NCBI GenBank assembly: GCA_025210965.1
Contig: JAOAQY010000098.1
Coordinates: 1 to 35,373, forward strand
DNA: 35,373 nt
Source of the DNA: Tissierellales bacterium
GTDB taxonomy: Bacteria > Bacillota > Clostridia > Tissierellales > JAOAQY01
Reading direction: 5' to 3'
Shown: in pieces, positions 1-11,078 of the stretch
Layout of the letters: the number at the start of each line of letters is the position of its first letter
Numbering within the stretch: position 1 is the first letter of the stretch
Notes under the pieces: generated by a model
Database searches by the model: none
Seen by the model: the letters and a program-made list of their open reading frames with translations, nothing else
Told to the model about the DNA's origin: nothing
Program-made: the position numbers and the translations under genes

Positions 1-98
1 TCCGTCTCTATTGGCTTAGCATAACCTATAAATCTCGACTTCTTTATTTCTATTTCATCACTAGCTTCTTCTAATACTGTTCGATACTGTGCTTCCAT
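1..98 (-). CDS. yigZ: YigZ/IMPACT family protein, N-terminal fragment
   Basis: Only the first 32 codons lie in the window; the gene continues past the left edge. The visible start reads MEAQYRTVLEEASDEIEIKK and continues SRFIGYAKPIET. This matches the typical N-terminus of the YigZ/IMPACT family, whose members begin with a tyrosine-rich stretch and a KKSRFIG(Y/H) motif. The ATG at 98-96 follows an AGAAGGA-type ribosome binding site. A second ATG at 102-100 is out of this frame. The gene lies downstream of the Nudix-like gene and hflX on the same strand, so it is probably the third gene of that operon. The molecular function of the family is not firmly established (links to translation regulation are known for IMPACT), so I claim only family membership. 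Confidence 0.8.
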   Translation of the reverse strand, partial: MEAQYRTVLEEASDEIEIKKSRFIGYAKPIET

Positions 99-130: not shown

Positions 131-556
131 CTATATAATTGCTTTATCTGCTGAATTTTTATCTTTCAAACTTTCCTTCAATATTTTTCTTTCTTGAGTG
201 TAAGTCAGTTTTTCTAATGCATCTTTAACTTCATAAAATCCCGCATTTTCTCTACCCTTCACTTTCGTCAAAGTAAAACTTTCTTCTAGTGTCTTCGCTT
301 CATACCAAATAACGGTATTGCACATTGGAACTTCCCGACTTACAGAATAAAACTCATAAACACTATCTCCTATGTGTTCCTTTAGAGCTATTTCCATCTT
401 AAAATATTGCCAAAACAAATCAACATATATATTTTTACTATGCCCAAATTCATCAATTCTAACTCTTGGCAATATCCATTCAAATTTTTCATTCTGTATC
501 ATAAAAACTTTATCTTTATGAAATACTACTCCGCCTATATAATTGCGATATAGCAT
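131..556 (-). CDS. Nudix-fold protein with degenerate Nudix box
   Basis: 141 residues. The N-terminus (YIGGVVFHKDKVFMI, then WILPR at about 27-31) has the beta-strand pattern of Nudix hydrolases. The middle (YEFYSVSREVPMCNTVIWYEA) and the C-terminal FYEVKDALEKLTYTQE also resemble clostridial Nudix-type proteins as I know them. The catalytic Nudix box (GX5EX7REUXEEXGU) should follow the WxLP segment but is not recognisable: residues 32-65 contain no GX5E, and the REUXEE part is reduced to something like KEHIG. The protein is therefore probably catalytically inactive, or uses another chemistry. AGGAGG stands upstream of the ATG. The gene begins 18 bases after hflX ends and is followed by yigZ, so all three are probably co-transcribed. 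Confidence 0.65.
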   Translation of the reverse strand: MLYRNYIGGVVFHKDKVFMIQNEKFEWILPRVRIDEFGHSKNIYVDLFWQYFKMEIALKEHIGDSVYEFYSVSREVPMCNTVIWYEAKTLEESFTLTKVKGRENAGFYEVKDALEKLTYTQERKILKESLKDKNSADKAII

Positions 557-6143: not shown

Positions 6144-6178
6144 AAAAAAACTCAAGGAAAAATCCTTGAGTTTTTTTT
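6144..6178. terminator. Bidirectional intrinsic terminator
   Basis: Arms CTCAAGGA (6151-6158) and TCCTTGAG (6163-6170) are flanked by seven A residues on one side and eight T residues on the other. It sits between the convergent dehydrogenase and response-regulator genes, overlaps the latter's stop codon by two bases, and can end transcription in both directions. Confidence 0.9.
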
Positions 6179-7352
6179 AAATTTTTATTTCAAAATGCTC
6201 TATAAAGTTTTCCAATTCATTCTTGTCTATCTCCAAATACTCAAAAACATCTTCTACTAGTTTGTTTTTCAAACATTCATGTCCCAACTTCTTCCATGAA
6301 TAATAATTAGCTAAATGAATTACAGAAACTAACTCTTTATTTATTATATTTTCACCAGTAGGATTATGATGAAATAATGTAGCCTCTACAATTGGAAATG
6401 GAAGCTCCCACCAATTAAGCAGATATCCCCCTATTTCTTGATGAGAAACGCCTAGAACTTCTTTTTCTGCCTCCCATGTATCCATATCATCAGAATCTTT
6501 TACCTTAGCTCTAGCGGCGTTTTTTTCATCACTAAAGTGCTCATAAATAACTACCTTACCAATATCATGTAATAACCCTGCACTTGCAAACGTACTTGGC
6601 ATTTTTTTATTGATAAACTCACTATATATGATATTAGCATAAGCATTCGTAAGACTAGCATGCTTCCAAAGCATTTCCTTCTCTTCTTTACCAGTCTTTA
6701 ATTCTTTAAATACACTATTCGTAAGAACTATGTTTTTGACACTTGTAAGTCCAATATAAATGATGGCTTGCTTTATAGAACCTGTTTTAGTACCGTAAAA
6801 AGCTGAATTCGCAACTCTAAGTATTCTAGATGAAATAGCAGGATCTTTCTCAATCTTCGTTGAAATTTCATCTATATCTGCCCCACTTTCAATTAATACA
6901 GCTATCTCTTGATAAAGGTTAGGAACTGTTGGCAAATCATTTATATTATTTATAAGTCTCAATAAATTCTTATCTTTAAGTATAGATTCTTGCTCAAAAA
7001 TCTTGTCAATTACAGTCTTTAATTCATCATTATTCCACGGTTTAAACAAATAAAGTTTGACTATATTATCCTCTAGTGCTTTATAAATCTTTATATTGTC
7101 AGTATATCCACTTAGCGCTACTCTAAGTGTAAGAGGATACTTTTCCTTAACCTTTCTAAGTAACTCATATCCATCCATTATTGGCATACGTATATCTGTA
7201 ATCAATAAGTCTATAGCATGATCTTCTAGTATTTGTAATGCCATCTCTCCGCTTTCAGCATAATAAGTTTCATAATCACTTCTAATAAATAGTCGCTTAA
7301 GCGCTCTCAAAATTTGTTTTTCATCATCTACAAATAAAATGCTCTTCGTCAT
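6177..7352 (-). CDS. Response regulator with HDOD output domain
   Basis: 391 residues. The N-terminal receiver domain (about 1-120) has the acidic pair Asp9/Asp10, phosphoacceptor Asp53 (LLITDIRMPIMDG), Ser81 and Lys104 (LFKPW). A short helical linker leads to an HDOD domain (about 138-345), starting LPTVPNLYQEI and including ANSAFYG, LLHDIGKVV (His262-Asp263) and a conserved SHQEIGGYLLNWW helix. HDOD proteins are usually signalling or scaffold modules; no DNA-binding or cyclase domain is present, so the output is probably protein-protein. I chose the ATG at 7352 because GGAGG lies just upstream; an ATG 12 bases earlier would include that site. No histidine kinase gene is adjacent, so its partner is unknown. 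Confidence 0.9.
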   Translation of the reverse strand: MTKSILFVDDEKQILRALKRLFIRSDYETYYAESGEMALQILEDHAIDLLITDIRMPIMDGYELLRKVKEKYPLTLRVALSGYTDNIKIYKALEDNIVKLYLFKPWNNDELKTVIDKIFEQESILKDKNLLRLINNINDLPTVPNLYQEIAVLIESGADIDEISTKIEKDPAISSRILRVANSAFYGTKTGSIKQAIIYIGLTSVKNIVLTNSVFKELKTGKEEKEMLWKHASLTNAYANIIYSEFINKKMPSTFASAGLLHDIGKVVIYEHFSDEKNAARAKVKDSDDMDTWEAEKEVLGVSHQEIGGYLLNWWELPFPIVEATLFHHNPTGENIINKELVSVIHLANYYSWKKLGHECLKNKLVEDVFEYLEIDKNELENFIEHFEIKI

Positions 7353-7470
7353 GTCGTCCTCCATTTTTAAGTTTAATATTCCTAAGAACCTAGCATCTCC
7401 TATATTTTATATACCTCTATTATAAACCATTAAACAAAAAAACTTAAGAGTCAAAAAAAATCTACTAATT

Positions 7471-7500
7471 TTGTTTTAATCATCATCTCTCGGGTATAAT
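7471..7500 (+). promoter_or_regulatory. Promoter of the candidate structured RNA
   Basis: TTGTTT (7471-7476) and a perfect TATAAT (7495-7500) are 18 bases apart. Transcription would begin near 7507 on the plus strand. No protein gene lies downstream on this strand before ppdK, which is opposite. Confidence 0.7.
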
Positions 7501-7506
7501 ATAATT

Positions 7507-7763
7507 ACATTAGATTTTCCTCTTTTAAAGAGGTTAATTTATAGAGGTGATTCCGGGGACTAAATAACGAGATTATTATCTTGTGATAGTTTACAAGCTA
7601 AAGTAGTACCATAGGTTACTATATTACTTTAATTAAGTTACTTTAGGAGGTATGTACTATCGAGGAAAAACACCAGTACTTTAAAATTAAATATATAAAT
7701 TCTAATAGTGCTTGGTTTCACTGAGACTCGATCAAAGGGTAAATTGCTTTGGTCGAGTTTTTT
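7507..7763 (+). ncRNA. Candidate stand-alone structured non-coding RNA
   Basis: About 257 bases bounded by a good promoter and an intrinsic terminator in a 480-base gap with no convincing protein frame. ATTAGATTT at 7509-7517 can pair with AAAtTCTAAT at 7697-7706 (one bulge), closing the 5' end against the 3' end. Inside are a CCTCT/AGAGG hairpin (7519-7533), a CTTGT/ACAAG hairpin (7581-7598), TAGTAC (7605-7610) that can pair with GTACTA (7654-7659), and an AGTG/CACT hairpin just before the terminator. I do not recognise riboswitch, tmRNA, SRP RNA or T-box signatures. A 6S-like or raiA-like RNA is possible, but I cannot assign it. The RNA limits are inferred. Confidence 0.55.
7725..7763 (+). 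terminator. Intrinsic terminator of the candidate RNA
   Basis: GACTCGATCAAAG (7725-7737) pairs with CTTTGGTCGAGTT (7747-7759) using one G-T pair plus a terminal wobble, with a nine-base loop, followed by a run of T. The 5' arm could also pair six bases (ATCGAG) with 7660-7665. Confidence 0.88.
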
Positions 7764-7799
7764 GTGCTTTAAATGCCCTGCTCTCATAGAAAATTATTT

Positions 7800-7830
7800 A
7801 AAAAAAGCGCACTGGATATCCAGTGCGCTT
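7800..7830 (-). terminator. Intrinsic terminator of ppdK
   Basis: A perfect inverted repeat with 11-base arms (AAGCGCACTGG) around ATAT spans 7805-7830. On the minus strand it is followed by a T run, 18 bases beyond the ppdK stop codon. Confidence 0.92.
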
Positions 7831-7848
7831 CTAATATATTAATCGCTA

Positions 7849-10467
7849 TTACTTGTTGATGATAGCAGCTTGAGCAGCAGCTAATCTAGCGATTGGTACT
7901 CTAAATGGTGAACAAGATACATAGTTCAAACCGATTCTGTGGCAGAATTCGATTGAAGATGGCTCTCCACCGTGCTCTCCACAAATACCTAATTTGATAT
8001 CTGGTCTTGTCTCTTGACCCAATTTTACAGCTGTCTTCATAAGTGAACCAACACCTACTTGGTCGATAGCTTGGAATGGATCTTTCTCGAATATTCCTCT
8101 TTCTTTGTATTCAGAAATGAACTTACCAGCATCATCTCTAGAGAATCCAAATGTCATTTGAGTTAAGTCATTTGTACCAAATGAGAAGAACTCTGCTTCT
8201 TCTGCAACTTGATTAGCAGTAACAGCAGCTCTAGGAATCTCAATCATTGTACCGATTTTGTAGTCTAACTTAACGCCAGCAGCTTCGATGATAGCGTCAG
8301 CTTCTTTAGCAGCTAATGCTTTCATTTCTGCTAATTCGTTTTTGTGTCCTACCAATGGAATCATGATTTCAGGAACAACATTTAATCCACCTTTGTTAAC
8401 TTCAACAGCAGCAGTGATAATTGCTCTAACCTGCATAGCATAGATTTCTGGATAAGTAACACCTAGACGACAACCTCTATGACCTAACATTGGGTTGAAC
8501 TCTGATAATTCTTCAACTTTAGCTTTTAATTCATCAAAGCTTAAGTTTAATGCATCAGCAACCTCTTGGATTTCTTCATCTTTGTGTGGTAAGAATTCAT
8601 GCAATGGTGGATCTAAAAGACGAACTGTAACAGGTCTATCTTCCATTGCTTTATAAATACCAACGAAGTCTTCTTTTTGGTATGGGAATAATTTTTCTAA
8701 TGCTTTTTCTCTTCCTTCAACTGTATCTGAAACGATCATTTGACGGAAGTTGAAAATTCTTTCCTCTTCGAAGAACATATGCTCTGTTCTACACAAACCA
8801 ATACCTTCTGCACCAAACTCAACTGCTTGAGCAGCATCTCTTGGAGTATCAGCATTTGTTCTTACTTTAAGAGTTCTAGTCTCATCAGCCCATCCCATCA
8901 ATGTTCCAAAGTTACCAGATAATTCTGGAGTAACAGTTTTGATAGAACCAGTATAAACATCACCAGTATTACCGTTTAATGAGATAAACTCGCCTTCTTT
9001 AACTTCTTTATCTCCAACGATCATTACTTTCTTTTCTTCATCAACTTTTGCGCTACCACAACCAGCAACACAGCAAGTACCCATACCACGAGCAACAACA
9101 GCTGCGTGAGATGTCATACCACCACGTTGAGTTAAGATACCTTCAGCACTTACCATACCTTCGATATCTTCTGGTGAAGTCTCAGCTCTTACTAAGATAA
9201 CTTTTTCGCCAGCTTCAGCTGCGTTTTTAGCATCTTCTGAAGTGAAGTATACTTTACCTGATGCAGCACCTGGTGATGCTGGTAAACCAGTTGTTAATAC
9301 TTCTGCCTTAGCTAAATCTTCTTTATCAAATGTTGGGTGAAGTAATTGATCCAATTGTTTTGGCTCAATACGCATGATTGCCTCTTCTTTAGTGATTAGA
9401 CCTTCTTCAACCATTTCAACTGCAATCTTAACAGCAGCAGCTGCTGTTCTCTTACCAGTTCTTGTTTGTAAGAAGTATAGTGTACCATTCTCGATAGTAA
9501 ACTCTAAATCTTGCATATCTCTATAGTGGTTCTCTAATTTATTTGCAATTTCCATGAATTGGTTGTAAACTTCTTCATTTATTCTCTTCATATCTTCGAT
9601 GTGAAGTGGAGTTCTGATACCAGCAACAACGTCTTCTCCCTGTGCGTTCATTAAGAACTCACCAAAAATACCATTGTCTCCAGTTGCAGGGTTTCTAGTA
9701 AATGCAACACCAGTACCTGATGTCTCACCTGCATTACCAAATACCATTGCTTGAACATTTACAGCAGTTCCAATGTCATGTGGAATTTCGTTTAAGTTTC
9801 TGTAAACGATAGCTCTTGGGTTATTCCAAGATCTAAATACAGCTTCTACAGCTTCCATTAACTGTGCTTTAGGATCCTGTGGGAAGTCCTTGCCAGTTTC
9901 TTCTTTAACTACTGCTAAATAAGCAGGAATCATTTCTTTTAGGTTTTCTGCAGTTAAGTCAGTATCTGACTCTACGCCATGTTTTTCTTTTGCTTCGTCT
10001 AAAATTGCTTCGAATTTAGATTTTGAAATCTCTAAAACAACGTCAGAGAACATTTGGATAAATCTTCTGTAGCTATCATAAGCCAATCTTTCGTTGTTAG
10101 TCAATTTAGCGAAACCTTCAACAGCTTCTTGGTTTAAACCTAAGTTTAATACTGTGTCCATCATACCAGGCATAGAAATTCTAGCACCTGAACGAACTGA
10201 AAGCAATAATGGATTAGAAACATCCCCGAATTTCTTTCCAAGCTTTTCTTCTACTTTTGCTAAATTTTCAAAAATTTCTGCTTCTACTGAAGCATCAATT
10301 TTCTTACCATCAGCATAGTACTTTGTACACATTTCTGTTGTTACAGTAAATCCTGGAGGAACTGGAACTCCGATGTGAGTCATCTCAGAAAGGTTTGCAC
10401 CTTTACCTCCCAATAAATTCTTCATTTCTTTTTTTCCTTCGTCGAAGGAATAAACATACTTAGCCAT
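7849..10467 (-). CDS. ppdK: Pyruvate, phosphate dikinase
   Basis: 872 residues, the normal length for bacterial PPDK. It interconverts pyruvate + ATP + Pi and PEP + AMP + PPi in the cytoplasm; in fermentative anaerobes it may work in either direction between glycolysis and gluconeogenesis. The N-terminal ATP-grasp part has SFDEGKKEMKNLLGGKGANL, SVRSGARISMPGMMDT and the ETSGTGVAFTRNP loop. The swivelling domain carries GGMTSHAAVVARG with catalytic His454 and regulatory Thr452. The C-terminal PEP/pyruvate barrel has the catalytic-Cys motif GICGEHGGEP. Thr452, two residues before the histidine, is the residue that the PDRP regulator family modifies, and such a gene (ppsR) is present at 17156-17971. 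AGGAG precedes the ATG. The gene has its own promoter and terminator. Confidence 0.98.
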   Translation of the reverse strand: MAKYVYSFDEGKKEMKNLLGGKGANLSEMTHIGVPVPPGFTVTTEMCTKYYADGKKIDASVEAEIFENLAKVEEKLGKKFGDVSNPLLLSVRSGARISMPGMMDTVLNLGLNQEAVEGFAKLTNNERLAYDSYRRFIQMFSDVVLEISKSKFEAILDEAKEKHGVESDTDLTAENLKEMIPAYLAVVKEETGKDFPQDPKAQLMEAVEAVFRSWNNPRAIVYRNLNEIPHDIGTAVNVQAMVFGNAGETSGTGVAFTRNPATGDNGIFGEFLMNAQGEDVVAGIRTPLHIEDMKRINEEVYNQFMEIANKLENHYRDMQDLEFTIENGTLYFLQTRTGKRTAAAAVKIAVEMVEEGLITKEEAIMRIEPKQLDQLLHPTFDKEDLAKAEVLTTGLPASPGAASGKVYFTSEDAKNAAEAGEKVILVRAETSPEDIEGMVSAEGILTQRGGMTSHAAVVARGMGTCCVAGCGSAKVDEEKKVMIVGDKEVKEGEFISLNGNTGDVYTGSIKTVTPELSGNFGTLMGWADETRTLKVRTNADTPRDAAQAVEFGAEGIGLCRTEHMFFEEERIFNFRQMIVSDTVEGREKALEKLFPYQKEDFVGIYKAMEDRPVTVRLLDPPLHEFLPHKDEEIQEVADALNLSFDELKAKVEELSEFNPMLGHRGCRLGVTYPEIYAMQVRAIITAAVEVNKGGLNVVPEIMIPLVGHKNELAEMKALAAKEADAIIEAAGVKLDYKIGTMIEIPRAAVTANQVAEEAEFFSFGTNDLTQMTFGFSRDDAGKFISEYKERGIFEKDPFQAIDQVGVGSLMKTAVKLGQETRPDIKLGICGEHGGEPSSIEFCHRIGLNYVSCSPFRVPIARLAAAQAAIINK

Positions 10468-10693: not shown

Positions 10694-10726
10694 CAAAAAA
10701 CAAAGAGTCTACCATTGGTAGACTCT
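10694..10726 (-). terminator. Intrinsic terminator of rnpB
   Basis: Arms AGAGTCTACC (10704-10713) and GGTAGACTCT (10717-10726) with a three-base loop are followed on the minus strand by TTTGTTTTTT. It lies about 15 bases beyond the RNase P RNA 3' end. Confidence 0.9.
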
Positions 10727-10740
10727 AATTTGCTAATAGA

Positions 10741-11078
10741 GTAAGCAAATCTATAAGCCGAGTTCTGTATTAGATTATCATCAATCTAGACCATTTGTTA
10801 CCAAATGGTTCAAGCAACCTACCATTAGAGAAAACAACGGGCAGCTGTCTTTTCAATCTCATTTTGGTCTTGCTCCAAGTGGGGTTTACATAGCAGACTA
10901 GTCGCCTAGCCTCTGGTGAGCTCTTACCTCGCCTTTCCATCCTTACCACACTAATGTGGCGGTTTATTTCTGTTGCACTATCCTTAGAGTCGCCTCCACT
11001 GGGGATTACCCAGCACCCTGCCCTATGGAGCTCGGACTTTCCTCATGCCAAAGCACGCGATAATCTGACTTACTTACC
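10741..11078 (-). ncRNA. rnpB: RNase P RNA (bacterial type A)
   Basis: About 338 bases on the minus strand. The RNA is the catalytic subunit that removes 5' leaders from pre-tRNAs. Diagnostic elements are GAGGAAAGTCCGAGCTCC near the 5' end (11044-11027), AGGGCAGGGTGCTGGGTAA, the AGTGCAACAGAAA...AAACCGCC core, GGTAAGGATGGAAAGGCG, and the 3' ACAGAACTCGGCTTATAGA that completes the core. The 5' GTAAGTAAGTC and 3' GATTTGCTTAC form the closing helix P1 with G-U pairs, which sets the limits. The overall plan fits type A rather than the Bacillus type B. It has its own promoter and terminator between nif3 and ppdK. Confidence 0.96.

What the first reader, a model, noticed from the sequence alone, without database searches (positions are those of the whole stretch)
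7507..7763. Unassigned structured RNA between the response regulator and ppdK
A strong promoter (TTGTTT-18-TATAAT) and a clear terminator bound about 257 bases with no protein gene, and the predicted 5' and 3' ends can pair. The terminator 5' arm also has a six-base alternative partner (ATCGAG, 7660-7665). I recognise no riboswitch core. The convergent orientation to ppdK argues against a leader and for a free-standing RNA.
Basis: partly seen in the sequence, partly recalled or inferred. Interest (0 to 1): 0.72.

Follow-up and report, generated by a model that had tools for sequence, protein, structure and literature searches.

The report
Orphan small RNA gene, no relatives
Between two protein genes that point the other way lies what looks like a separate small RNA gene of about 255 letters with its own start and stop signals; it matches no known RNA family and no relative was found, so it is probably an ordinary lineage-specific regulatory RNA whose job is unknown.

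Summary
The basic observation holds. A promoter (TTGTTT-18-TATAAT, 7471-7500) and a one-directional 15-bp terminator ending in U6 (7723-7763) bracket about 255 protein-free bases on the + strand. The nearest upstream + strand gene ends about 1.6 kb earlier, so the terminator needs its own transcript. This makes a free-standing RNA gene the best reading. The extras are weak. The 5'-3' pairing occurs in the predicted fold, but is no stronger than in shuffled sequence. The six-base alternative partner (actually 7659-7664) appears in 20% of shuffles, and forcing it costs about 20 kcal/mol. Without the terminator the fold is only moderately unusual. Nothing in Rfam matches, and the genome carries its 6S, SRP, tmRNA and RNase P RNAs elsewhere. 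No homologue appeared in 249 genomes of the order, 391 genomes drawn from the class, 80 ppdK loci, phages or plasmids. No other member of this organism's family turned up among the held genomes, so covariation cannot be tested. Best guess: an Hfq-independent trans-acting sRNA. Its first ~39 bases pair with ribosome-binding sites better than 98% of shuffles, but that stretch is predicted to lie in a hairpin. Transcription, structure and targets all remain unshown.

The parts
7471..7500 (+). sigma-70/SigA-type promoter TTGTTT-18-TATAAT; predicted start of transcription near 7507
   Evidence: sequence; 0.3% of shuffles of the gap hold such a site
7511..7541 (+). P0: 5' hairpin whose 5' arm (UUUUCCUCUUUU) is complementary to ribosome-binding sites and whose 3' arm (AAAGAGGUUAAUUUAU) resembles one
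   Evidence: pair probabilities about 0.7-1.0; 5' tile 7507-7545 favours translation starts over coding controls, 1.7% of shuffles as strong
7546..7562 (+). P1 5' strand: irregular helix joining the two ends of the core
   Evidence: pair probabilities 0.84-1.0 with 7706-7722; not stronger than chance for end-to-end pairing
7567..7584 (+). P2 hairpin
   Evidence: pair probabilities 0.87-0.99
7585..7661 (+). P3 irregular stem-loop
   Evidence: pair probabilities 0.8-0.95 at its base, lower at the tip
7662..7705 (+). A/U-rich stretch predicted mostly single-stranded
   Evidence: unpaired probability mostly 0.5-1.0
7706..7722 (+). P1 3' strand
7723..7763 (+). intrinsic terminator, 15-bp helix then U6, + strand only
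7800..7833 (-). separate terminator of the convergent ppdK gene (not part of the RNA; marks its 3' boundary)

Best explanation
An autonomous small RNA gene on the + strand, transcribed from about 7507 and ended at about 7763 by its own terminator, giving a structured transcript of about 255 nt. It probably acts in trans as an Hfq-independent antisense regulator: the U/C-rich 5' segment (7511-7526, anti-Shine-Dalgarno) pairs with ribosome-binding regions of mRNAs when hairpin P0 opens, while the folded core and terminator protect the RNA. Supported by sequence: promoter, terminator, absence of a reading frame, absence of known family. Inferred: transcription itself, the seed, the mode of action and the targets. 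I put the existence of the RNA gene at about 0.75 and, given that, the base-pairing mechanism at about one half; the confidence given is for both together.
For: Promoter rare in shuffles. One-directional terminator with no same-strand gene for about 1.6 kb upstream; most comparably strong terminators in 267 kb of this genome directly follow a gene, are the back side of a symmetric one, or (RNase P) end an RNA gene. Fold z -5.8 with terminator, and the + strand folds better than the - strand (z -5.8 against -3.2). No Rfam match and all four housekeeping RNAs found elsewhere. Of 9 tiles along the RNA only the 5' one clearly prefers translation starts (-2.9 kcal/mol; shuffles -1.0 +/- 0.7, 1.7% reach it). 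RBS-blocking sRNAs of this kind exist in related Clostridia (SpoY on spo0A, PMC10267692).
Against: No homologue anywhere searched, so no conservation or covariation. The anti-Shine-Dalgarno stretch is predicted paired inside P0. No single outstanding target: the ideal 22-nt RBS target is absent within 3 mismatches, the best genome-wide complementarities look like chance, and neither neighbour gene ranks high. The tile test was one of nine. No expression data.
Confidence: 0.4

Rival explanations
1. A structured RNA that works by binding a protein or complex (6S-like or raiA/ModT-like) rather than by base pairing.
For: About 255 nt, closing helix P1, branched interior and an own terminator, larger than many base-pairing sRNAs.
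Against: No 6S or raiA match even at E 5; a clear 6S gene lies on another contig; core fold without terminator only moderately better than shuffles; interior 7563-7705 z about -0.9; no phylogenetic conservation found.
Confidence: 0.2
2. A regulator of its neighbours in cis: occasional read-through past 7763 gives an antisense transcript to the 3' end of ppdK, or convergent transcription interferes with it.
For: Convergent arrangement with only about 85 bases between the RNA terminator and the ppdK stop.
Against: Both sides have strong terminators; no special complementarity to the ppdK or response-regulator start regions (ranks about 92-208 of 216); gene order after ppdK is not conserved.
Confidence: 0.12
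3. An orphaned or decayed 5' leader (riboswitch or attenuator) whose gene has been lost or inverted.
For: Terminator at the end and a short alternative partner for its 5' arm (7659-7664).
Against: Alternative partner expected in 20% of shuffles and costs about 20 kcal/mol; no known aptamer; no + strand gene follows.
Confidence: 0.1
4. Non-functional: chance promoter plus terminator in an AT-rich gap, making at most a short-lived transcript.
For: No conservation found; P1 pairing and alternative partner at chance level; the looser promoter scan shows no excess.
Against: Strong one-directional orphan terminator and a promoter site found in 0.3% of shuffles, in the right order and spacing.
Confidence: 0.18

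Closest known systems
SpoY / SpoX-type antisense sRNAs of Clostridioides difficile (PMC10267692)
   Same: Free-standing sRNA genes of a clostridial relative; SpoY blocks a ribosome-binding site by base pairing, as proposed here.
   Different: SpoY works with Hfq; no Hfq gene was found in this genome. Targets here are unknown. Sequence similarity to SpoY or SpoX was not tested directly.
raiA motif / ModT RNA (RF03072; PMC11706538)
   Same: Free-standing, SigA-transcribed, structured, trans-acting RNA of comparable size in Clostridia.
   Different: No raiA match at this locus, and none in this genome or 59 others of the order.
6S RNA (RF00013)
   Same: Ends pair into a closing helix with an irregular inner stem.
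   Different: No match to the model; genome has a true 6S on contig C102; hairpin on the 5' side and a 44-nt single strand on the 3' side instead of the 6S bubble.
Bacterial large SRP RNA (RF01854)
   Same: Similar length (about 256 positions).
   Different: True SRP RNA is on contig C101.

Membership tests
6S RNA (RF00013) | match to the covariance model | tested here: not met
   no 6S match in 7400-7860 at E up to 5; the 6S gene is on C102, 70.3 bits
raiA / ModT RNA (RF03072) | match to the covariance model | tested here: not met
   no match at the locus nor in the genome at E up to 1
SRP RNA, tmRNA, RNase P RNA | match to the covariance model at this locus | tested here: not met
   true copies elsewhere
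Any Rfam 15 riboswitch or leader | gathering-score match plus a regulated gene downstream | tested here: not met
   no gathering-level match; no + strand gene downstream
Free-standing sRNA gene | own promoter and own terminator, no reading frame | tested here: met
   in silico only
Free-standing sRNA gene | a discrete transcript in the cell | not testable with these tools
   no RNA-seq available
Base-pairing antisense sRNA | accessible seed complementary to mRNA translation starts | tested here: inconclusive
   5' tile prefers translation starts but lies in hairpin P0; no outstanding target
Hfq-dependent sRNA | Hfq in the cell | tested here: not met
   no Hfq family match at E up to 0.001 in the 96% complete assembly
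Conserved structured RNA family | homologues with compensatory changes | tested here: inconclusive
   no homologue found, but no other genome of the same family was among those drawn

The most novel reading that the evidence does not exclude
A new class of structured, trans-acting RNA confined to this poorly sampled family, with a function of its own (RNP scaffold or global translation regulator through its anti-Shine-Dalgarno 5' arm).
Probability: 0.1. Interest if true: 0.55.

Novelty: new member of a known kind. Interest (0 to 1): 0.28.

Why it matters
If transcribed, it adds one orphan sRNA to an almost unsampled clostridial lineage that appears to lack Hfq, where how sRNAs act is poorly known. 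As it stands it is a plausible annotation (misc_RNA / putative sRNA) and a candidate for RNA-seq, not a surprise.

Tried and rejected
Known family: cmscan at gathering and at E up to 5 gave only chance-level matches. Divergent housekeeping RNA: excluded, since all four exist elsewhere. Homologues by blastn in relatives, phages and plasmids: none; the single 24-nt match in G026 is antisense to the ribosome-binding site and start codon of an unrelated gene. Covariance model from the single sequence (R1): best matches 32 bits, E 0.006 and 0.002 per genome, over 249 and 391 genomes, which is about what chance gives; the former aligns only P1 with the interior missing. Exact-pattern scans of viral contigs: none. 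The response regulator as an anchor for close relatives: none; ppdK as an anchor: nearest about 70% identical, gene order downstream not conserved. Paralogues in the genome: none. Specific target: none convincing. Terminator switch: rejected. Coding potential: no + strand reading frame with a convincing start inside the RNA.

Full report
Observation. In the 484-base gap between the response regulator with HDOD domain (6177-7364, - strand) and ppdK (7849-10467, - strand) the + strand carries TTGTTT (7471-7476), an 18-base spacer and TATAAT (7495-7500), then about 255 bases without a + strand reading frame with a convincing start, then a 15-bp hairpin with a U6 tail at 7723-7763. A site of the form TTGNNN-16..18-TATAAT appears in 0.3% of dinucleotide shuffles of the gap and seven times in the whole window. 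The generic promoter scan does not list it because TTGTTT matches TTGACA at only three positions, and that scan finds no excess of promoter-like sites.

The strongest evidence is the terminator. It is one-directional (no U-tract on the other strand) and no + strand gene ends within about 1.6 kb upstream. In 267 kb of the same genome most comparably strong terminators sit just after a same-strand gene or are the back side of a symmetric terminator; the RNase P terminator in this window is another that follows an RNA gene. So something on the + strand is probably transcribed into 7763, and the promoter at 7471 is the natural source.

Structure. The minimum-energy fold has a 5' hairpin P0 (7511-7541), an irregular closing helix P1 (7546-7562 with 7706-7722), hairpin P2 (7567-7584), stem-loop P3 (7585-7661), a mostly unpaired A/U-rich stretch (7662-7705) and the terminator, most core pairs having probability above 0.8. 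Energy is -72.5 kcal/mol, z -5.8. The + strand does better than the - strand (z -5.8 against -3.2). Without the terminator z falls to -3.3 to -3.9, and about a fifth of the windows from other long gaps of this genome are as extreme. The pairing of the ends is no better than the best end-to-end duplex of shuffles (35% reach it), and the six-base alternative partner of the terminator arm (7659-7664, not 7660-7665) occurs in 20% of shuffles and costs 20 kcal/mol when forced. The fold is therefore plausible but unproven, and the hinted switch is rejected.

Identity. Nothing in Rfam 15 matches at gathering scores or credibly at E up to 5. The genome has its RNase P RNA (window 10738-11076, - strand), 6S (C102), SRP RNA (C101) and tmRNA (C34) elsewhere, and no raiA RNA was found in it or in 59 other genomes of the order. 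So the RNA is not a disguised housekeeping RNA.

Relatives. blastn over 100 genomes of the order and over phages and plasmids found nothing but one 24-base chance match to a ribosome-binding site. A covariance model from the single sequence, run over 249 genomes of the order, 391 of the class and 80 ppdK loci, gave only matches expected by chance, and there is no second copy in the genome. The comparison is weak: every relative drawn was classed no closer than the same order, the response regulator has no close relative, and the nearest ppdK is about 70% identical. Absence of homologues thus means 'restricted to a poorly sampled lineage or too diverged', not 'not conserved'.

How it may work. 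With no downstream gene it is unlikely to be a leader, so action in trans is the default. When the RNA is tiled against 194 translation-initiation regions of this genome and equal-length coding controls, the 5' tile (7507-7545, containing UUUUCCUCUUUU) is by far the most biased towards translation starts (-2.9 kcal/mol mean difference; shuffles -1.0 +/- 0.7, 1.7% as strong). This suggests an anti-Shine-Dalgarno seed, as in RBS-blocking sRNAs such as SpoY of C. difficile (PMC10267692). Against it, the stretch is predicted to be paired in P0 with a Shine-Dalgarno-like 3' arm, nine tiles were examined, and no single mRNA stands out. No Hfq gene was detected, so an Hfq-independent mode would be needed. 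Neither neighbour's start region shows special complementarity, which speaks against local antisense control.

Verdict. A probable orphan sRNA gene: supported by its transcription signals, unassigned to any family, not shown to be conserved, function inferred only. Ordinary in kind, new as an individual.

Noticed in passing
window 10738-11076, - strand: Class A RNase P RNA between ppdK and the Nif3-like gene, with its own terminator near 10701.
   Followed up: yes
L110:4144-4181, - strand (contig C60 of the same genome): SECIS_4 element (64.8 bits): the organism probably makes a selenoprotein.
   Followed up: no
L100:17999-18093 and L100:6977-7020 (contig C2): THF and PreQ1 riboswitches.
   Followed up: no
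window 7519-7548 and 7644-7653: Three Shine-Dalgarno-like stretches (AAAGAGGT, ATAGAGGTGAT, TTAGGAGGTATG) inside the RNA, none with a usable start codon. The first (AGAGGTTAATTTATAG) closely resembles a probable ribosome-binding site and start elsewhere in the genome (AGGAGGTTAATTTATG, L143 near 1501).
   Followed up: partly
own genome G000: No Hfq family match in a 96% complete assembly, and no raiA RNA in 60 genomes of the order at E up to 1 (stricter filters).
   Followed up: partly
window 131-556, - strand: 141-aa reading frame beside hflX with no Pfam match.
   Followed up: no
window 7515-7522 and 7662-7669: UUUUCCUC and GAGGAAAA are perfectly complementary: a possible long-range alternative to P0. 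Forced as nested pairs it costs about 9 kcal/mol; as a pseudoknot with P1 it could not be scored.
   Followed up: partly
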